DNA of 64,000 nucleotides, from contig NZ_CP025473.1 of NCBI RefSeq assembly GCF_003957375.1, positions 1-64,000 on the forward strand, read 5' to 3'. Made by a program: the position numbers and the translations under genes. This stretch comes from Enterococcus mundtii. Lineage in GTDB: Bacteria > Bacillota > Bacilli > Lactobacillales > Enterococcaceae. Each line of letters begins with the position of its first letter. Positions within the stretch are counted from its first letter, which is position 1. Below the pieces are notes generated by a model that ran no database searches, had not been told where the DNA came from, and saw nothing but the letters and a program-made list of their open reading frames with translations. Shown here in pieces: positions 6,188 through 59,509 of this stretch.

Positions 6188-8683
6188 ATGAGTGAAGAAA
6201 TCAGAGAAAACATCCATGATGTCAATCTAACTAGCGAAATGAAAGACTCCTTCATAGATTACGCCATGAGTGTCATTGTCGCTCGGGCTCTACCAGATGT
6301 TAGAGATGGATTAAAACCAGTTCACCGCCGTATTTTATATGGGATGAATGAACTAGGTGTCACACCAGACAAAGCACACAAGAAATCAGCCAGAATCGTG
6401 GGGGACGTCATGGGTAAATACCATCCCCATGGTGATAGTGCGATCTATGAGTCAATGGTTCGGATGGCGCAGCCTTTTAGCTATCGCTACATGTTAGTAG
6501 ATGGTCATGGAAACTTTGGGTCAGTTGATGGAGATGGCGCAGCAGCGATGCGTTATACTGAAGCCAGAATGAGTAAGATCGCGACAGAAATGTTACGTGA
6601 TATCAATAAAAATACGGTCGATTTCCAAAGCAACTATGATGATACGGAAAAAGAACCAGTTGTCTTACCGGCACGTTTTCCTAACTTATTAGTCAATGGT
6701 ACGACAGGGATCGCGGTTGGGATGGCGACGAATATCCCACCACATAATCTGACAGAAGTTGTAGCAGCGATTGATCTATTGATGGAAAATCCAGATGTGA
6801 CAACCAATGAATTGATGGAAGTCTTACCTGGTCCTGATTTTCCTACAGGCGGATTAGTCATGGGGAAATCTGGTATTCGTCGAGCGTATGAAACAGGAAA
6901 AGGTTCGATCACTGTTCGAGCAAAAGTAGAAATCACGGAAATGCCAAATGGAAAAGAGCGGATCTTAGTCACTGAATTGCCATATATGGTCAATAAAGCG
7001 AAATTGATTGAGCGAATTTCAGAATTGCACCGTGACAAACGAATTGAAGGTATCACGGATCTAAGAGATGAATCTTCTCGTGAAGGAATGCGTATCGTGA
7101 TCGATGTGCGTCGTGACGCGAGTGCCTCTGTCATTTTGAACAATCTCTACAAATTGACATCCTTACAAAACTCATTTGGTTTCAATATGTTAGCAATCGA
7201 AAAAGGCGTACCGAAAGTTCTAAGCTTGAAGCAGATCCTTGAAAATTATATCGAACACCAACGCGAAGTTATTACACGTCGTACGGTCTTTGAAAAGGAT
7301 AAAGCAGAAGCAAGAGCACATATCTTAGAAGGACTACGCATCGCCTTAGATCATATTGATGAAATCATCGCGATCATTCGTGGGTCCAAATCAGATGAAG
7401 AAGCGAAAAACACGATGATCGAACGCTTCGAACTTTCTGACCGTCAGTCGCAAGCAATCTTAGATATGCGTTTACGCCGTTTGACTGGTTTGGAAAGAGA
7501 AAAAATCGAAAATGAATACCAAGAATTATTGAAACTCATTGAAGATCTAGCTGATATTCTTGCTCGCCCTGAACGCGTAACAGAAATCATCCAAACTGAA
7601 CTTGCTGAATTGAGTCAACGATTTGGCGACAAACGTCGTACAGAATTACTGGTCGGTGAAGTCTTGAGTTTAGAAGACGAAGATTTAATCGAAGAAGAAG
7701 AAATCGTGATCACATTGACGAATAATGGCTATATCAAACGTTTAGCCAACAACGAATTCCGCGCACAACGTCGTGGGGGCCGAGGCATCCAAGGAATGGG
7801 TGTTCATAACGATGATTTCGTGAAAAATCTTGTTTCTTGCTCAACACATGATACATTGCTTTTCTTTACCAATAACGGAAAAGTGTATCGTGCGAAAGGA
7901 TACGAGATCCCAGAGTACGGACGTACAGCAAAAGGGATTCCGATCATCAACTTACTTGGCATTGATTCAAGTGAGAAGATCCAAGCAATCATCGCAGTAA
8001 CTGGTGAAGCAGAGGAAGGACATTACTTGTTCTTTACTACGCGACAAGGAACAGTCAAACGTACGACTGTCACTGCTTTTGCCAATATCCGTAGCAATGG
8101 GTTGATTGCGATTGGTTTGAAAGAAAATGATGAATTGGTCAACGTCTTATTGACTGATGGCAAATCAAACATCATCATTGGTACACACGATGGATATTCT
8201 GTGACTTTTGCAGAAGATGCCGTTCGTGATATGGGACGTACAGCCTCTGGGGTTCGTGGGGTTCGTTTGAGAGAAGACGATTATGTCGTTGGAGCAGCCT
8301 TGATGAACGAGGATCATGAAGTCTTGATCATCACAGAAAAAGGTTATGGAAAACGTACCAAGGTTTCTGAGTATCCTGTCAAAGGACGTGGGGGTAAAGG
8401 GATCAAAACTGCGAATATCACTGAGAAAAATGGTCCATTAGCTGGATTGACCACGGTAACAGGCGAAGAAGATATTATGTTGATCACAGACAAAGGTGTC
8501 ATCATCCGCTTCAACGTTTCAACGGTTTCTCAGACAGGTCGGGCAACGCTAGGCGTACGCTTGATCAAGATGGAAGCAGAAACGAAAGTGGTGACCATGG
8601 CAGCAGTAGAACCAGAACCTGCGGAAGAAACGACTGTCGAAGCAGAGACAGTTGATGTGGAAACAGGTCATACAGAAGAATAG
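6188..8683 (+). CDS. gyrA: DNA gyrase subunit A
   Basis: DNA-cleaving and rejoining subunit of gyrase. The catalytic tyrosine is Tyr123 (in [11 protein letters not shown]). The quinolone-resistance region reads [17 protein letters not shown] with Ser84 and Glu88, the positions corresponding to E. coli Ser83 and Asp87; both look wild type, so no common fluoroquinolone-resistance change is present here. The C-terminal beta-pinwheel carries the GyrA box QRRGGRG and ends in an acidic, Glu-rich tail. GAAGGAGG at 6173-6180 supports the start. Confidence 0.98.
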
Positions 8684-8719
8684 AAAATAGGCGTAAAACA
8701 AAAGTGAAGGTCTAAAATC

Positions 8720-8762
8720 AAAACTTCCAAGAATAGGTAAAACTATCTTTGGGAGTTTTTGG
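8720..8762 (+). terminator. Terminator after gyrA
   Basis: AAAACTTCCaagaATAG and CTATctttGGGAGTTTT form an imperfect stem with a GU pair, ending in TTTTT. It closes the yaaA-gyrA operon. Confidence 0.6.
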
Positions 8763-8802
8763 TCGTCTTAAAAGAAAAATTTGGAAAACAAAGAACAGCA
8801 GC

Positions 8803-8831
8803 TTGCTTTTTTAGTGCGTTGCGTGTATAAT
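8803..8831 (+). promoter_or_regulatory. Promoter of rpsF-ssb-rpsR
   Basis: TTGCTT (8803-8808) and perfect TATAAT (8826-8831) with a 17 bp spacer, about 90 bases before rpsF, leaving room for a structured leader. Confidence 0.75.
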
Positions 8832-8837
8832 CGAGGA

Positions 8838-8918
8838 TTGTGAGTAGTCTAATTTATTAGAAAACTCTCCTTGCTCTTGGGAAAGCTGAGAGCCGAAAGT
8901 CCATAGGGAGGTGAAAAA
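8838..8918 (+). promoter_or_regulatory. rpsF leader, probable S6:S18 autoregulatory RNA
   Basis: The roughly 80-base 5' leader between the promoter and rpsF contains the segment GAGAGCCGAAAGTCC near 8888-8902. A CCGAA-type box is the hallmark of the known bacterial rpsF leader that mimics the 16S rRNA site bound by S6:S18. The motif and its place are seen; the regulation is inferred from the known family. The ribosome binding site GGGAGG sits just after it. Confidence 0.55.
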
Positions 8919-8921
8919 TCA

Positions 8922-9221
8922 ATGGAAAACACGAAATATGAAATCATGTATATTATTCGTCCAAACATTGATGAAGAAGCAAAAACTGCTTTAATCGAAC
9001 GTTTCGATTCAATCTTGAAAGATAACGGAGCTGAAGTTATCGAATCAAAAGATTGGGAAAAACGCCGTTTAGCATACGAAATGAACGGTTACCGTGAAGG
9101 TATCTATCACATCGTTAAAGTATCTTCTCCATCATCAGCAGATGCAATCAACGAGTTTGATCGTCTTGCTAAAATCAATGACGATATCGTTCGTCATATG
9201 ATCGTAAAAGAAGAAGCTTAA
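8922..9221 (+). CDS. rpsF: 30S ribosomal protein S6
   Basis: A 99-residue primary component of the small-subunit platform that pairs with S18. It begins [19 protein letters not shown] and contains the conserved [20 protein letters not shown] core. The start has a strong GGGAGGTG site. It is the first gene of rpsF-ssb-rpsR and lies behind a probable S6:S18-responsive leader. Confidence 0.97.
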
Positions 9222-9225
9222 TTAT

Positions 9226-9241
9226 TGTTTCACATGGAACA
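9226..9241. other. parS-like site between rpsF and ssb
   Basis: A 16-mer TGTTTCACATGGAACA that differs from the known ParB/Spo0J parS consensus TGTTTCACGTGAAACA at two positions. It lies in the short rpsF-ssb gap, close to the origin, where functional parS sites are expected. Binding is not shown by sequence alone. Confidence 0.4.
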
Positions 9242-9268
9242 ATCAAACGATGAGAGGAGATGACCATT

Positions 9269-9790
9269 TTGATTAATAACGTTGTACTAGTTGGACGTCT
9301 GACAAAAGATCCGGATTTACGATATACATCAAGTGGCACTGCTGTAGCAACGTTCACTTTAGCTGTTAATCGTAACTTCACGAGCCAAAACGGCAACCGT
9401 GAGGCGGATTTTATTAATTGTGTGATTTGGCGAAAATCAGCAGAAACACTAGCAAACTATGCACATAAAGGAACTCTTTTAGGTGTAACTGGTCGTATTC
9501 AAACGCGTTCTTATGATAATCAACAAGGACAACGTGTGTACGTAACAGAAGTAGTTGCTGAAAACTTCCAATTATTGGAAAGTCGTGCAGCATCTGAAAA
9601 CCGTCAACAAAGCGGTGGCTACCAAGACACTGGTCAATCGACAAATAATTTTGGCGGAAACGGCGGAAACAATAACTATAATCAAACATCTCAATCATCC
9701 AACGGTATGCCTGATTTTGATCGTGATTCTTCTGATCCATTCGGATCAAGCTCAACGATCGACATTTCAGACGATGATTTACCATTCTAA
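9269..9790 (+). CDS. ssb: Single-stranded DNA-binding protein
   Basis: Protects single-stranded DNA in replication and recruits repair proteins. An OB-fold occupies about residues 1-105, a Gly/Asn/Gln-rich flexible linker follows, and the protein ends in the canonical acidic tip [10 protein letters not shown] place the start at TTG 9269, giving [11 protein letters not shown] as in the family. The in-frame ATG at 9260 abuts the GAGAGGAG ribosome binding site (9252-9259) with no spacer, whereas the TTG sits 9 bases away. From the TTG the protein is 173 residues. Confidence 0.93.
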
Positions 9791-9815
9791 ACGAATTTGA
9801 TAGGAGGGAAATAGA

Positions 9816-10052
9816 ATGGCACAACAAAGAAGAGGCGGACGTAAACGTCGTAAAGTAGACTACATCGCTGCTAACCATATTGAATATATCGATTATAAAG
9901 ATATCGAATTACTAAAAAGATTTATCTCAGAACGCGGTAAAATTTTGCCACGTCGTGTAACAGGTACAGGCGCTAAAAACCAACGTAAAATTACGATTGC
10001 AATCAAACGCGCACGTATCATGGGATTACTACCATTCGTTGGCGAAGAATAA
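9816..10052 (+). CDS. rpsR: 30S ribosomal protein S18
   Basis: A 78-residue basic ribosomal protein that binds S6 on the 30S platform. It starts [18 protein letters not shown] and includes the conserved [20 protein letters not shown] block. A GGAGGG site precedes it. It ends the rpsF-ssb-rpsR operon and is followed by a strong terminator. Confidence 0.97.
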
Positions 10053-10103
10053 TTCGCTTTAGGAATGATTCTGTAGGAATACCCAATCGTTTCAAACCAT
10101 TAC

Positions 10104-10142
10104 AGAGGAAGTTATGACTACTGTCGTGACTTCCTCTTTTTG
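10104..10142 (+). terminator. Terminator after rpsR
   Basis: AGAGGAAGTtatGAC and GTCgtgACTTCCTCT form a strong stem with a short loop, followed by TTTTT. Confidence 0.85.
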
Positions 10143-10218
10143 TTCCATTTAGGTGTTTAGTCGCTTACATGACATGAGTTATGGTAAAATTAGGCTAATC
10201 AGTTACGGGAGGAAAGAC

Positions 10219-12191
10219 ATGGATAAAGAAAAAATAAAAGTAAGCCCGAGCCCTCTGCTCATTCTTTTATTGATCCTTGCAGAAGTTTTGGTTGTATTAT
10301 TGATGCCATTTCGATTGATCAGTGCGTTATTCATCCTGATCGTGAATCTATTTTGTATTCGTTATGGTTTAAAGATGAAACGGTGGTTGACTCTAAGGAA
10401 TCGTGACAAGATCCAACAAGCTTCCACAGTTGCGGAATCCAATTTGAATTATGTTTCTGAGATCATGCCTGTCGGAATCATTTCTTACCAACCAGCGACA
10501 CAAACCATTGATTGGCTGAATCCTTTCGCATTGAATGTGAAAGACCAAAGCTCTTTATTGGAAACAGACTTGTTAGAAACTTTTTTTTCAGCAAAAGAAA
10601 AAAAGAAAAATCAAGTCTATTTAGCTGACAAAACGTTTCAATTTGAATTGGATACGGTGAAAGGGGTCGTTTACTTTATTGACGTGACCCAGAACCAATT
10701 ACTGAAGATTCATCAAGTGAATAGCCAGCCAATCATCGGTATTCTTTCAATCGATAACTATGCAGATACGGTCGATAAATTGGATGAAAAAGAAGTTTCT
10801 TATTTGAACTCCTTCATTACGACACTGATTTCTGATTGGATGAATGAATATCATGTGTTTTTTAAACGAATCAATTCAGAGCGCTTTTTCTTTTTTGGAC
10901 AGATGAGCGACTTAAAGAAAATGATGGATAAGAAATTTGATCTCTTAGATCGCTTACGAGCTGAAGCTGAAAGACAAAATCATCCGTTGACACTTAGCAT
11001 GGGGATCGCCTATGGGCAACAGTCGCTAGAAGAAATCGGCAGTGAAGCTCAAAACAACTTAGATATTGCCTTAGTTCGTGGGGGGATCAAGTTGTGGTGA
11101 AAGAAGTTCGCGAAGGTGCAAAACCCACTTATTATGGGGGGAAATCAGCGACAACAATCAAGCGTACGCGCGTTCGTTCACGGGCGATGAGTACTGCTTT
11201 ACGCAAAATCTTTGATGAAACAGGCGATGTATTTATTATGGGGCATCGCTTCCCTGATATGGACGCTATCGGTTCAGCCGTTGGAGTCAGTTGTCTGGCG
11301 CGCTTCAATCAGAAAAAAGCCTATATCGTCATCGATGAAAAAGAAATCATTCCAGATGTGGAACGCTGTTTAACAGAAATCCATAAAGAACCAGAGTTGG
11401 AGATGCAATTGATTACGCCAGAACGTGCAATGGAGCTTAAGAAAGCCAAGGATCTACTTGTAATGGTCGATTACCATAAACCATCGCTATCGATCTCTCA
11501 GAGCCTTTACGAGCAATTTGATAAAATCGTGATCATTGACCATCATCGTCGAGGCGAAGAGTTTCCAAGCAAACCGCTCTTAACGTATATTGAATCTTCT
11601 GCGTCTTCTGCCTCTGAATTAGTCACAGAATTGATCCAATACCAAAGTAGCCGAACCAATCGGATCAGCCGTTTAGAAGCGACGTTGTTGTTAGCTGGCA
11701 TGACCGTTGATACGAATAACTTCAATGTGCGAACGACAGCACGTACGTTTGATGTTGCAAGCTATTTAAAGACTTGTAGTGCGGACGCATCCTTAGTACA
11801 ATATTTATTGAGCTCTGATTTAGCCACTTATTTAGAAATCAGCCACTTGATCGCCCACAATGAACAAGTGACGGAGGATATTGTGGTGGCAGCAGGGACG
11901 GATGAAAAAGAGTATAATAGTGTTATCGCAGCAAAAACAGCAGATACATTGCTATCAATGGTCAATATCAACGGCGCTTTCGTCATTACGAAACGGACGG
12001 ATGGCTTAGTTGGTATCAGTGCCCGCAGCACAGGAACGATCAATGTCCAATTGATCATGGAATCCTTAGGCGGTGGCGGACATTTCACCAACGCGGCAAC
12101 ACAACTGGAAAATGTGACTGTAGAAGAAGCAAAACAACAACTGCTCGCTGCTATCCAAGAAAATATGAATCAATTATATAAAAAGGAGTAG
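10219..12191 (+). pseudogene. gdpP: Cyclic-di-AMP phosphodiesterase GdpP, split by a single-base frameshift
   Basis: Membrane c-di-AMP phosphodiesterase of about 657 residues, seen here as two overlapping reading frames (10219-11100 and 11094-12191). The first half has two membrane helices (about 8-52), a PAS-like region and a degenerate GGDEF, ending ALVRGGIKLW. The second holds the DHH/DHHA1 catalytic part with MGHRFPDMDAIG, IIDHHRR and GGGGHFTNAA. Adding one G to the G6 run at 11080-11085 restores RGGDQVVVKEV and one full-length protein. I start it at ATG 10219 behind GGGAGG, not at the upstream GTG. Real loss of function, an assembly error or frameshifting remain possible. It is followed 5 bases later by rplI. 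Confidence 0.85.
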
Positions 12192-12196
12192 ATGAG

Positions 12197-12649
12197 ATGA
12201 AAGTCATTTTCTTACAAGATGTTAAAGGCAAAGGCAAAAAAGGCGATGTCAAGGAAGTTCCTACAGGCTATGCGCAAAATTATTTAATCAAAAACAATCT
12301 GGCAAAAGAAGCAAATAAAAGTAGCATCAGTCAGTTAGAAGGACAGAAAAAAGCCCAAGAAAAACAAGAAGCAGAAATTCTTGAAGAAGCCAAAAAATTA
12401 AAAGAATTTCTTGAAAAAGAAGAAACAGTCGTGGAATTAAAAGCCAAAGCGGGAGAAGATAGCCGTTTATTTGGCTCGATTCCATCAAAACAAATCGCTG
12501 AAGGCTTGAATAAGCAATACAAAGTAAAATTAGACAAACGTAAAATCGAGTTGAATAACCCAATTCGTACGTTAGGTTATACCAACGTACCTGTGAAACT
12601 ACACCATGAAGTAACTGCAACGATCAAGGTACACGTTGTCTCTGAATAA
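12197..12649 (+). CDS. rplI: 50S ribosomal protein L9
   Basis: A 150-residue L9 protein that binds 23S rRNA near the L1 stalk. The N-terminal globular domain starts [21 protein letters not shown], a long charged connecting helix lies at about 45-75, and the C-terminal domain follows. It begins 5 bases after the gdpP stop with an AAAAGGAG site, so it is co-transcribed with gdpP, as in other Firmicutes. Confidence 0.97.
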
Positions 12650-12656
12650 ACGAAAA

Positions 12657-12780
12657 GAACATGTGACGAAATCACTTCGATAAATCAGCCGCAGAGGACA
12701 AAAATCGCTTTCGATTATTTTTGACTTTTGCGGCCTATTTTCGAAGGAAGAGCTTTTGGAACAGATGTTCATTTTAGGGA
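12657..12780. repeat. Nested-hairpin intergenic element A
   Basis: Between rplI and dnaB. Outer arms are GAACAT (12657-12662) and ATGTTC (12765-12770). The inner hairpin runs 12688-12734, with GCCGCA paired to TGCGGC and AAAAAT to ATTTTT. The unit is followed by TTTTAGGG. Two more elements of the same design lie at 14242 and 15896. The inner stem may also serve as a weak terminator for rplI. Confidence 0.5.
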
Positions 12781-12838
12781 TGACTTTTCTGCCATTTTCT
12801 TGTAAAATGAAGCAATTGAAAGCAAGGAGCGATAGAAT

Positions 12839-14206
12839 ATGAGTGAAGTGTGGCAGGATCGAATTCCACCGCAAAATATTGAAGCTGAGCAATCGGTTCT
12901 AGGTTCTGTTTTTCTAGACGCTGAAACGATCATCGATGCCATGGAGTACATAGAACCGAAAGATTTTTATCGTCGGGGACATCAAATCATTTTTGAAATC
13001 ATGATCGAATTGAATGACCGTAGTGAAGCGATTGATGTCGTGACCGTCAAAGATCGTTTGGAGCAACGAAATCTCTTGGAAGATGCTGGTGGAGTCAGTT
13101 ACTTATCTGATTTAGCTTTAGCTGTACCAACGGCAGCAAACATTGTCTACTATGCAAAAATCGTGGAAGAAAAATCATTGCTCCGTAATTTGATCCAAAC
13201 AGCAACAGGGATCGTTACTAGAGGATTTGAACAAGGAGAAGAAGTCCAATCCATCTTAGATGATGCGGAACGTAGCATTCTTGAAGTATCAGAAAAACGT
13301 AACCGTAGCGGGTTCTTATCCATTGCGGAAGTCTTGAATTCTACGATTGAAAATATTGACCAACTCGCGCAAAACAATGAAGAGATCACAGGTTTGCCAA
13401 CTGGTTACCAAGGATTAGATAAAATGACTGCTGGCTTCCAAGCAGAAGAGCTGATTATTTTGGCTGCACGTCCGGCAGTAGGAAAAACAGCCTTTGCCTT
13501 GAATATTGCCCAAAATGTTGGCACAAAAACGGATCGTTCTGTAGCGATCTTCAGTTTGGAAATGGGGGCAGAATCACTGGTCAACCGGATGCTTTGTGCA
13601 GAAGGTTCGATTGAAGCGAGTCACTTACGTACGGGACAGCTGTCCGAAGAAGAATGGTCCAATTTGATTGTTGCGATGGGTAGTTTATCTAAAGCAAATA
13701 TCTTTATTGATGATACACCAGGGATCAAAATCTCTGAGATACGAGCAAAATGTCGGAAACTTGCACAAGAAAAAGGAAATCTAGGCTTGATACTCATCGA
13801 TTACTTGCAGTTGATCGAAGGAAATGGGAAAGAAAACCGTCAACAAGAAGTATCCGATATCTCACGTCAATTGAAAAAACTAGCGAAAGAATTAAAAGTT
13901 CCCGTCATTGCTCTTTCCCAGCTTTCTCGTGGAGTGGAACAACGCCAAGATAAACGACCTGTCTTAAGTGATATCCGTGAGTCTGGTTCGATCGAGCAGG
14001 ATGCGGATATCGTGGCATTCTTATATCGTGATGATTACTACGAACGTGAAGGTGGCGAAGATGGTGATGCGCCAGAACCACAAAACGATAATGTGATCGA
14101 AGTCATCATTGAAAAAAACCGGAGTGGAGCAAGGGGAACGGTCGAATTGCTCTTTATCAAAGAATACAATAAATTTTCCTCGCTTTCTCCGCGAGAAGAA
14201 TATTAG
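12839..14206 (+). CDS. dnaB: Replicative DNA helicase DnaB
   Basis: Hexameric 5'-3' replication fork helicase (called DnaC in Bacillus). The 455 residues contain the N-terminal primase-interacting domain (about 1-110), a linker, and the RecA-like motor with Walker A RPAVGKTAFALN near residue 213, Walker B LILIDYLQLI and the conserved ALSQLSRGVEQRQDKRP loop. The start has GCAAGGAG about 8 bases upstream. A nested hairpin element precedes it and another follows it. Confidence 0.97.
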   Translation: MSEVWQDRIPPQNIEAEQSVLGSVFLDAETIIDAMEYIEPKDFYRRGHQIIFEIMIELNDRSEAIDVVTVKDRLEQRNLLEDAGGVSYLSDLALAVPTAANIVYYAKIVEEKSLLRNLIQTATGIVTRGFEQGEEVQSILDDAERSILEVSEKRNRSGFLSIAEVLNSTIENIDQLAQNNEEITGLPTGYQGLDKMTAGFQAEELIILAARPAVGKTAFALNIAQNVGTKTDRSVAIFSLEMGAESLVNRMLCAEGSIEASHLRTGQLSEEEWSNLIVAMGSLSKANIFIDDTPGIKISEIRAKCRKLAQEKGNLGLILIDYLQLIEGNGKENRQQEVSDISRQLKKLAKELKVPVIALSQLSRGVEQRQDKRPVLSDIRESGSIEQDADIVAFLYRDDYYEREGGEDGDAPEPQNDNVIEVIIEKNRSGARGTVELLFIKEYNKFSSLSPREEY

Positions 14207-19702: not shown

Positions 19703-21445
19703 TTACAACTGATTAGACAAAAGTTGCGTATATATTTCATGAAGCACCGGCATACCATGTACTTCGTATTTTTCTTTGAAGCGTTCGATTTCGTCTTCGC
19801 TATACTTTCTTGGGTCTAAGTGTAAGTCTTCGACAGGTAAGGGCCGTTTATTGGGGATCTTGACGTCGATCACTACTGGTCGATCAGATTTCGCCGCAGC
19901 ATTGAAGGCAGGGCGTAATTGCTCGTAGTGCGTGATCGTGAAGCCATCGGCACCTAAGGCTTCGCAGGCTTTCCCAAAATCAGCTTGTTCAAGAGAAACA
20001 CCAAATTTTTGTTGTTCAGTGTCTTCTTGTTCTGCTTCGATAAATCCGAATGAATCATTTGAGAAAACGACATTGATGATTGGCAACTGATAGCTGACTT
20101 GGGTCAAGATATCTTGCATCACCATTGCAAAACCGCCGTCTCCGCTTAAAGTAAAGACTTGTTTCTCCGGAAAGCTTAATTTAGCAGCAATTCCTCCTGG
20201 TACACCGTTGCCCATCGTCGCAAACCAACCAGAAGTAGTGTGTAACTGCTCACCAGTCATGTTCAGTAAACGAATCGAATGAATAGTCGTATTTCCAACA
20301 TCTGTCACAAAAATAGCATCACGTTCGGCAATTCGGTTGATTTCTTTATAGACCGTTTCTGGTCGAATCGATGGCTCCGTGGGTTCTTCAAACGACGTTA
20401 ACCAACGCCGCCAATTGCGAAGATTTTCTTGATTGGCTAGATACCAAGCATCTTCTAAGCGTTCTTTCCCCAATTCAACTAGGTTTTCTAACGTTGTTTT
20501 TCCATCACCTAAGATCGCTAAATCGGTGTGGTGGCGGCGGCCGAATTTAGCGGCATCAATATCGACTTGGATAAAGGCTGATTCTGGATTGAAAAAGGTT
20601 CGCCCAAAAGGGAAATCACTTCCTACAAATAAAATCAAATCGGCTTCTGCCAATGCTTCATTCGCAGGTTTTGTCGCTACCCGACCTGCAAATCCAAGAA
20701 AATTTTTGTCTTCATCTGGCACGATTCCTTTTGCTAAAACAGAAGCAACCACTGGCATTTTGAAATATTCGGTAAATTTCTTGATCTGATCATAGCCATG
20801 ACGAACACCTTGACCGATGAACAAGACAGGTTTTTGAGCTTGTTCGAGATAAGGAAGGGCTGCTTTCACGTCTTCAATCTCAGGGAGGATCACTCCTGTT
20901 TTGTACGTGGAAGCATTAGAAACATCCTGCTACTCGATTTCTTCAAAACCAAAATCAACTGGGATCGTCACAACAGCGACTCCTTGATGTGCATAAGCTG
21001 CCTTGATAGCTTCATCAACGACATAAGGTAAACTTTCTGGTGTCATGACTGTCCGATTATAAACACTAACATCAGCGAAAATTGGATTTTCATTTAATTC
21101 TTGAAAGGCAGTATAATTCATAGAAGTCGAAGCCACTTGTCCTAAAAGGGCGACAACTGGGACGTGATCCATTTGGGCATCGTAAAGCCCGTTGATCAAA
21201 TGAGTGGCTCCAGGACCAGCTGAGCCAAAGACAGCTCCGACTTTTCCTGTTAATTTGGCATCCGCTGCGGCAGCTAACGCGCCCACTTCTTCGTGACGTA
21301 CTTGGATATAATCGATTTGGTCTTTTTCATGGTACAACGCATCCATAATGGAATTGAACGAACCACCCGGAATCCCATAAATATGATCAACTTCCCAGCT
21401 TTCAAGCACTTTTACCATGGCAATACCGGCATTTATCGTTGACAT
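19703..21445 (-). pseudogene. pox: Pyruvate oxidase, interrupted by an in-frame amber codon
   Basis: ThDP- and FAD-dependent enzyme turning pyruvate, phosphate and oxygen into acetyl phosphate, CO2 and hydrogen peroxide. The N-terminal part (to 20930) has the ThDP region HEEVGALAAAADAKLTG and GPGATHLING; the rest has the ThDP/metal motif GDGGFAMVMQD followed by NDSFGFIEAEQ. One frame of 579 sense codons, the family's normal size, is broken only by TAG at 20930-20932, with homology running on directly after it (QDVSNAST). A Gln CAG to TAG change is a simple explanation. TAAGGAG and a TATAAT (21471-21476, minus) precede the start. The C-terminal part could restart at GTG 20893, but alone it would lack the first ThDP domain. 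Confidence 0.85.
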
Positions 21446-58207: not shown

Positions 58208-59509
58208 ATGCGGATGGTCGATTTGATTGAAAAAAAGAGAGATGGATACCAGTTATCAAAAGAAGAGATTTCGTATATTGTCACGAACTACACAAACGAT
58301 AAAATCCCTGATTATCAAATCAGTGCATTATTGATGGCTATTTTTTATCAAGATATGACCGATGAAGAAATCACAGATTTAACGTTGGCGATCGCTCATT
58401 CTGGCGATGTGATCGATTTGAGCTCATTAGAAGGAATAAAAGTCGACAAACATTCTACCGGAGGTGTGGGGGATACAACTACCTTGATTTTAGCACCTTT
58501 AGTAGCAAGTGTAGGTGCAACTGTGGCAAAAATGTCAGGGCGTGGTCTTGGCTACACAGGTGGCACATTAGATAAGTTAGAAGCTATTCCTGGATTTCGG
58601 ATCGAACTATCAGATGAAGAATTCATCCGCATCGTGAACGAAAGTAAAGTAGCGGTGATCGGCCAATCGGGCAATCTCGCTCCAGCAGATAAAAAATTGT
58701 ATGCTTTGCGTGATGTGACAGCAACGGTCAACTCGATCCCATTGATTGCTAGCTCGATCATGAGTAAAAAAATCGCCGCAGGAGCGGATGCGATCGTGCT
58801 AGATGTGACGACGGGTGACGGTGCCTTCATGAAAAATATCGAAGATGCAAGACGTTTAGCTAAGACCATGACAAGGATCGGCAAGTTGGCTAATCGTCAA
58901 ACAGTGGCAGTGATTTCTGATATGTCTGAACCATTGGGTGAAGCGATCGGCAACAGCTTAGAAGTCATTGAAGCAATCGAGACACTACAGGGGAACGGAC
59001 CGGAAGATTTAGTCGAAATGTGCTATGCTTTAGGCAGTCAGATGGTGGTGCTAGCAGGTAAAGCAACAACGATCGAAGAAGCACGTACATTGCTTAAAGA
59101 AGCACTCGAATCTGGAAAAGCTTTAGCGAAATTCAAAGAGATGATCCAAAACCAAGGGGGGGATCCGACAATCGTCGATGAACCTGCGCGGTTGTTAACT
59201 GCTCGTTATATTTATGAACTGCCAGCTAAGACAACGGGTGTCGTGACCAAAATCGTTGCAAACGAATTCGGGATCGCAGCAATGATGCTTGGTGCAGGAC
59301 GTAAAACGAAAGAAGATTCGATCGATCACGCTGTTGGTTTGCGATTGAATAAGAAAATCGGTGATAAAGTAGAAGCTGGCGAATCGCTATTGACGATCTA
59401 TAGTAATGAAGAAGACATTTCGCCAGTGATCGACTTATTATATAAAAATATTGAAATCGGTGATACGGCGGAGAAGCCTATCTTGATTCATGACATCATT
59501 ACAGAGTAG
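58208..59509 (+). CDS. pdp: Pyrimidine-nucleoside phosphorylase
   Basis: Splits thymidine, deoxyuridine and uridine with phosphate into base and (deoxy)ribose-1-phosphate. Start ATG 58208, behind GAGGAGG, gives 433 residues, [16 protein letters not shown]; the longer upstream frame runs into the promoter. Family motif [15 protein letters not shown] and [16 protein letters not shown] are seen. First gene of the operon, 13 bases before deoC. Confidence 0.95.

What the first reader, a model, noticed from the sequence alone, without database searches (positions are those of the whole stretch)
11077..11100. gdpP split by one missing G in a G run
The two frames 10219-11100 and 11094-12191 would join exactly into a full-length GdpP if the six-G run at 11080-11085 were seven: the protein would then read RGGDQVVVKEV. 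Loss of GdpP raises c-di-AMP and is known in other Firmicutes to change beta-lactam tolerance and cell-wall stress. A real homopolymer slip could be a phase-variable switch; equally, it may be an assembly error.
Basis: partly seen in the sequence, partly recalled or inferred. Interest (0 to 1): 0.75.

Follow-up and report, generated by a model that had tools for sequence, protein, structure and literature searches.

The report
gdpP frame break, probably assembly error
A signalling-enzyme gene in an Enterococcus mundtii-like bacterium looks cut in two by one missing base, but the same assembly drops single bases elsewhere, so this is most likely a sequencing error and not a genetic switch.

Summary
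The split is in the sequence. gdpP has one frame at 10219-11100 (PAS, GGDEF) and an overlapping one at 11094-12191 (DHH-DHHA1), one base out of register at the G run 11080-11085. All 94 relatives fetched (83 distinct) have one uninterrupted ORF with an invariant RGGDQ here; none has six or more G. An inherited switch tract is therefore not supported. The DHH-DHHA1 half is 365 of 365 residues identical to the two nearest relatives (38 silent, 0 replacing codon changes against the nearest), so any break is very recent or not real. The assembly is suspect. Its plasmid contig, against a near-identical record, has 31 indels in 49.8 kb; this assembly is shorter in 30 (25 by one base), and substitutions lie only near block ends. 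Five plasmid genes are whole in the other record and broken here. On the chromosome 7 of 338 conserved genes carry a one-base deletion, against one one-base change in the reverse comparison of 337. Best reading: a consensus deletion error (about 0.75). Main rival: a real, very recent frameshift (about 0.2), which need not mean loss of function.

The parts
10219..11100 (+). 5' frame of gdpP: N-terminal part, PAS_GdpP and GGDEF_GdpP domains, ending early at TGA 11098-11100
   Evidence: Pfam PF21370 and PF24898 over their cut-offs
11080..11085 (+). run of six G at which the frame is one base out of register; no run of six or more G in any of 94 relatives
   Evidence: alignments; codons
11094..12191 (+). 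3' frame of gdpP: DHH and DHHA1 catalytic domains with their motifs, 365 aa from GTG 11094; GTG 11097 overlaps the upstream stop as GTGA
   Evidence: Pfam PF01368 and PF02272 over their cut-offs; purifying selection and motifs

Best explanation
The cell most likely carries an ordinary, intact gdpP. The consensus of this assembly came out one base short at a G-rich spot and so splits the gene on paper into a PAS-GGDEF frame and a DHH-DHHA1 frame. Shown: the frame break; intactness in all fetched relatives; many one-base deletions in this assembly's plasmid contig against a near-identical record; an excess of one-base deletions in conserved chromosomal genes, several in G runs. Inferred: that the gdpP instance belongs to this error class; no reads and no second assembly of this chromosome were available.
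For: Plasmid contig against NZ_CP029067.1: 31 indels in four clean blocks of 49.8 kb, this assembly shorter in 30 (25 by one base), 19 frame-changing in annotated CDS; the 12 substitutions all lie within 42 bases of a block end. Five plasmid genes whole in that record and broken here; two of these, VirB4-like and primase-like, are whole in one piece in 7 of 7 other records listed for each (the lists are capped at 8). Chromosome: one-base deletion in 7 of 338 conserved ORFs, against one one-base change in 337 in reverse. Six-base G/C runs of the sister are five long here at 5 of 12 aligned sites, never the reverse. The 3' half shows 0 replacing changes. A paper on MinION assemblies describes deletion errors tied to homopolymers of two to eight bases (PMC12007338, passages seen).
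Against: The chromosome looks far cleaner than the plasmid contig: one-base gaps against the sister are only mildly lopsided (coding 22 against 18, intergenic 74 against 57). Five 16S copies agree without one-base indels. A/T runs of six and seven are one base shorter at 31 and longer at 18 sites. Other six-G runs and a seven-G run at 59156 sit in open frames. None of the broken chromosomal genes is one I would call essential (recalled). A nonsense codon and a five-base insertion in other genes suggest some real decay. The comparison plasmid record has faults of its own: where it holds a stretch twice, 4 of the 11 sites at which this assembly is shorter than one copy are not longer in the other copy. 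The site also differs from relatives by a substitution, which an error in length does not explain.
Confidence: 0.75

Rival explanations
1. A real, very recent one-base frameshift in gdpP of this strain. Full-length membrane GdpP is lost. The catalytic half may or may not still be made by re-initiation at GTG 11094/11097, so c-di-AMP could rise (loss) or fall (freed domain).
For: Sister comparison shows other breaks of a kind not typical of length errors: a nonsense codon in pyruvate oxidase and a five-base insertion in a TyrP-like antiporter. The broken chromosomal genes look dispensable (names; dispensability recalled). Enterococci acquire gdpP mutations under drug selection (PMC11633384, passages seen). 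5' half: 14 silent and 3 replacing private changes here, against 37 silent and 0 replacing between the two relatives.
Against: Plasmid contig with near-only deletions. 0 replacing changes in the 3' half. Mismatch repair genes mutS and mutL are open, so no mutator of that kind.
Confidence: 0.2
2. A phase-variable G tract that switches GdpP on and off by slipped-strand mispairing.
For: The break lies in a run of six G, and G runs vary in length between this assembly and the sister.
Against: 0 of 94 relatives have a run of six or more G at the site. Six is short for a contingency tract (recalled). 15 other runs of six or more G/C lie in the 564 kb examined. The search for gdpP with phase variation or homopolymer listed no paper holding gdpP among the 12 shown of 383.
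Confidence: 0.03
3. Recoding: ribosomes slip back by one base at the G run and make full-length GdpP from the split gene.
For: A run of six G in the zero frame lets the P-site tRNA re-pair one base back, which leads into the DHH frame (read).
Against: No stimulating structure: the 101-nt fold is no better than shuffles (z 0.98). The run is not conserved and relatives need no recoding.
Confidence: 0.02

Closest known systems
GdpP (YybT) c-di-AMP phosphodiesterase of Firmicutes
   Same: PAS, GGDEF, DHH and DHHA1 domains in order, motifs of the catalytic half present, one ORF in 94 of 94 relatives
   Different: Here read in two frames, one base out of register
Deletion errors in long-read consensus sequences (PMC12007338, passages seen)
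   Same: One-base deletions, many in homopolymers, breaking otherwise conserved genes
   Different: The sequencing method of this assembly is not known to me; chromosome much cleaner than plasmid contig; A/T runs little affected on the chromosome
gdpP mutations selected in E. faecalis (PMC11633384, passages seen)
   Same: Interruption of gdpP in an enterococcus
   Different: Those were premature stops or catalytic-domain substitutions in evolved lineages with c-di-AMP measured; nothing is measured here

Membership tests
GdpP c-di-AMP phosphodiesterase | PAS and degenerate GGDEF domains | tested here: met
   PF21370 and PF24898 over their cut-offs in the 5' frame
GdpP c-di-AMP phosphodiesterase | DHH and DHHA1 domains with DHH and GGGGH motifs | tested here: met
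   PF01368 and PF02272 over cut-offs; motifs (motif list recalled)
GdpP c-di-AMP phosphodiesterase | all domains in one open frame | tested here: not met
   two frames in this assembly; one frame in 94 of 94 relatives
GdpP c-di-AMP phosphodiesterase | hydrolysis of c-di-AMP | not testable with these tools
   no assay
Assembly deletion error | the same assembly lacks single bases elsewhere against near-identical DNA | tested here: met
   25 one-base deletions in 49.8 kb of plasmid contig, polarity supported for five genes
Assembly deletion error | raw reads disagree with the consensus | not testable with these tools
   no reads held
Phase-variable homopolymer gene | tract kept in relatives with varying length | tested here: not met
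   0 of 94 loci with six or more G
Phase-variable homopolymer gene | mixed tract lengths within one culture | not testable with these tools
   no reads held
Programmed -1 frameshifting | conserved slippery site with a stimulating structure | tested here: not met
   site not conserved; fold z 0.98

The most novel reading that the evidence does not exclude
The frameshift is real and, instead of destroying GdpP, unties its catalytic half: re-initiation at the GTGA overlap, behind a site that pairs with the 16S tail at -14.4 kcal/mol, makes a soluble DHH-DHHA1 enzyme free of PAS/GGDEF control. A review reports the DHH-DHHA1 part of E. faecalis GdpP alone as about 13-fold more active than full length (PMC10243994, passage seen), so c-di-AMP would fall, the opposite of what loss of GdpP predicts.
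Probability: 0.05. Interest if true: 0.45.

Novelty: not a real feature. Interest (0 to 1): 0.12.

Why it matters
It warns against reading this genome's gene breaks as biology: gdpP, pnp, glpO, a carotenoid-desaturase-like gene and plasmid transfer and replication genes would all be called pseudogenes here. If the break proved real, it would be a natural test of whether splitting GdpP removes c-di-AMP hydrolysis or frees it from control.

Tried and rejected
Phase variation: no fetched relative has the tract. Mutator by loss of mismatch repair: mutS (876-aa open frame) and mutL (703 aa) are open in G000, G007 and G008. Recoding: no conservation, no structure. A conserved internal start was considered because pairing with the 16S tail is strong: -14.4 kcal/mol, stronger than at all 299 internal start-like codons sampled in ten window frames (the tail's letters occur in five places of the own genome). 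It is a by-product of the invariant RGGDQ codons (median -11.9 kcal/mol in 83 distinct relatives), and a start-like codon is among the next four codons in only 39 of 83. Promoter-like and terminator-like matches were at shuffle level. A second copy of the locus: the phage collection gave five records at 80-90% identity, the plasmid collection none for the 5' frame. Two chromosomal stretches searched against plasmids gave no record covering 80% of them. Papers: no paper in the held library holds both gdpP and Enterococcus mundtii or Enterococcus mundtii and Pe103; a search for E. mundtii genome reports by method listed 8 papers, none opened; the search listed 9, of which one was opened (PMC11633384, passages); of the 15 listed one was opened (PMC12007338, passages); of the 6 one (PMC10243994, passages). 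The alignment mixed unmatched stretches and was not used. The joint alignment of the rRNA stretches failed outside 16S because of masking and different flanks; one search replaced it.

Full report
WHAT IS THERE. The window is the first 64 kb of a 2,768,701-base chromosome; the genome has a second contig of 58,171 bases. The closest named relative found is Enterococcus mundtii CVM N55263, and the second contig matches an E. mundtii plasmid. gdpP lies between what I recognise as rpsR and rplI (names recalled). The frame from ATG 10219 ends at TGA 11098-11100; a second frame runs from GTG 11094 to 12191. Pfam finds PAS_GdpP and GGDEF_GdpP in the first and DHH and DHHA1 in the second.

RELATIVES. 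I examined 14 same-genus genomes and the best 80 of 94 confirmed loci of the named genome collection: 94 loci, 83 distinct by DNA of the 3' half. In 94 of 94 both pieces lie in one ORF and the residues at the break are RGGDQ. The longest G run in the 12 bases after the Arg codon is 2 in 77, 4 in 5 and 5 in 12 loci. The nearest relative (G007, 96.9% identical over the gene) has no run there. The window thus differs by a one-base length change plus at least one substitution. Which base is absent cannot be told from this, and a conserved switch tract is not supported.

SELECTION. Against the nearest relative the 3' frame differs at 38 codons, all silent; window-private changes are 30 silent, 0 replacing. 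The 5' frame has 14 silent and 3 replacing private changes, while the two relatives differ from each other at 37 silent and 0 replacing codons. A long-dead gene is excluded; a very recent break, or none, remains.

IS THE ASSEMBLY TO BE TRUSTED? (a) Plasmid contig. I compared all of it with NZ_CP029067.1 (E. mundtii Pe103, plasmid pPe10301). Four clean blocks cover 49.8 kb and hold 31 indels; this assembly is shorter in 30, by one base in 25. 21 lie in annotated CDS, 19 of them frame-changing. The 12 substitutions all lie within 42 bases of a block end; the first 21.7 kb has none. Left out of these counts: a 2.4-kb block with 17 substitutions and no indel, matches under 1 kb, and the second match of a 9.7-kb stretch that pPe10301 holds twice. 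In that second match there are 13 indels, this assembly shorter in 11; at 7 of the 11 both pPe10301 copies are longer, at 4 only one is, so that record has faults too. I therefore tested direction by open frames: of 38 pPe10301 ORFs of 100 aa or more found here, 9 are broken here. One of the 9 spans the end of this contig and three lie in the duplicated stretch; the other five (prealbumin-like, sortase, VirB4-like, AAA ATPase, primase-like) are whole there and broken here. In reverse, 6 of 40 are flagged: one spans the start of the pPe10301 record, and the others overlap these or other indel sites and look like fragments or extended frames. The VirB4-like and primase-like proteins are whole in one piece in 7 of 7 other records listed for each (capped lists). 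Zero internal substitutions with many one-base losses in transfer and replication genes is most simply a consensus with deletion errors.

(b) Chromosome. I compared 564 kb of G000 with 617 kb of the collinear sister G007. Of 440 G007 ORFs of 150 aa or more, 338 were found in G000, 325 intact and 13 flagged. Seven have a one-base deletion here: gdpP; an iron-type ABC ATPase-like gene at 124334; pnp at 167974; a glycosyltransferase-like gene at 246385; a PTS IIC at 287956; glpO at 374630; a phytoene-desaturase-family gene at 524766. One has a five-base insertion (TyrP-like), one a nonsense codon (pyruvate oxidase), and four rows are in-frame stops in the 252-279 kb region, two of them the same place. 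In reverse, 389 ORFs gave 337 found and 4 flagged: two are the same sites seen from the other side, one is a late stop, one a one-base change (names, some below the family cut-off). Among G/C runs of five or more that differ in length, this assembly is shorter at 8 and longer at 3; six-base runs of the sister are five long here at 5 of 12, never the reverse; at least one of the five (277153) lies in a repeated element.

(c) Results the other way. In the first 364 kb one-base gaps are only mildly lopsided: coding 22 against 18, intergenic 74 against 57. A/T runs of six and seven are one base shorter at 31 sites and longer at 18. Five 16S copies agree without one-base indels; of 23S only parts were comparable, since parts were masked. 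Other six-G runs and a seven-G run at 59156 are in open frames. So the chromosome is much cleaner than the plasmid contig and some real decay may exist. This is why I stop at 0.75.

IF IT WERE REAL. The short product would keep the N-terminal part, PAS and most of GGDEF and lose the catalytic half. The catalytic half could still be made. GTG 11097 overlaps the upstream stop as GTGA, and the preceding bases pair with the 16S tail at -14.4 kcal/mol, within the range of 12 presumed true starts in the window (-5.9 to -16.7) and stronger than all 299 internal start-like codons sampled. That strength comes from the invariant RGGDQ codons and is not a conserved device. A review passage (PMC10243994) reports the DHH-DHHA1 part of E. 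faecalis GdpP alone as about 13-fold more active than full length. The genome also has open frames for the cyclase domain (305 aa), a PgpH-type protein (733 aa) and a 321-aa DHHA1 protein that I take for DhhP (that name is inference). In E. faecalis evolved under beta-lactams, lineages with pgpH or gdpP mutations reached very high c-di-AMP (PMC11633384, passages).

VERDICT. The most likely cause is an assembly deletion error in an ordinary gdpP (0.75), then a real recent frameshift (0.2). Phase variation (0.03) and recoding (0.02) are not supported.

Noticed in passing
window 19703-21445 (- strand): Pyruvate oxidase (SpxB-type by its intact G007 relative) has an in-frame stop at 20932 where G007 has a Trp codon; a substitution, so not of the one-base-deletion kind.
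   Followed up: partly
G000:C1:167546-169653 (L160): pnp (PNPase) is broken by a one-base deletion here; 14 of 14 other same-genus genomes have a match over nearly the whole gene, whose frames I did not check.
   Followed up: partly
G000:C1 374630 and 524766; window 20932: glpO and pyruvate oxidase, both hydrogen-peroxide formers (recalled), and a carotenoid-desaturase-like gene are all broken in this assembly; if any of these breaks are real they could mark a changed oxidative lifestyle or pigment loss.
   Followed up: no
window 11080-11100 and 83 relatives: The invariant RGGDQ codons of gdpP form a Shine-Dalgarno-like stretch between the GGDEF and DHH domains (median -11.9 kcal/mol in 83 distinct relatives); whether it makes ribosomes pause there is untested.
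   Followed up: partly
NZ_CP029067.1 22019-31693 and 31688-41362 (L176, L177): The pPe10301 record holds a 9.7-kb stretch twice in tandem at 99.9% identity; the plasmid contig of this genome holds it once, so the record may be over-assembled.
   Followed up: partly
phage records OR848374.1, OR846940.1, OR846603.1, PQ519989.1, OR847167.1: Records labelled as Listeria and Enterococcus phages match the window's 8000-14000 core-gene region at 80-90% identity, which suggests host chromosome filed as phage.
   Followed up: no
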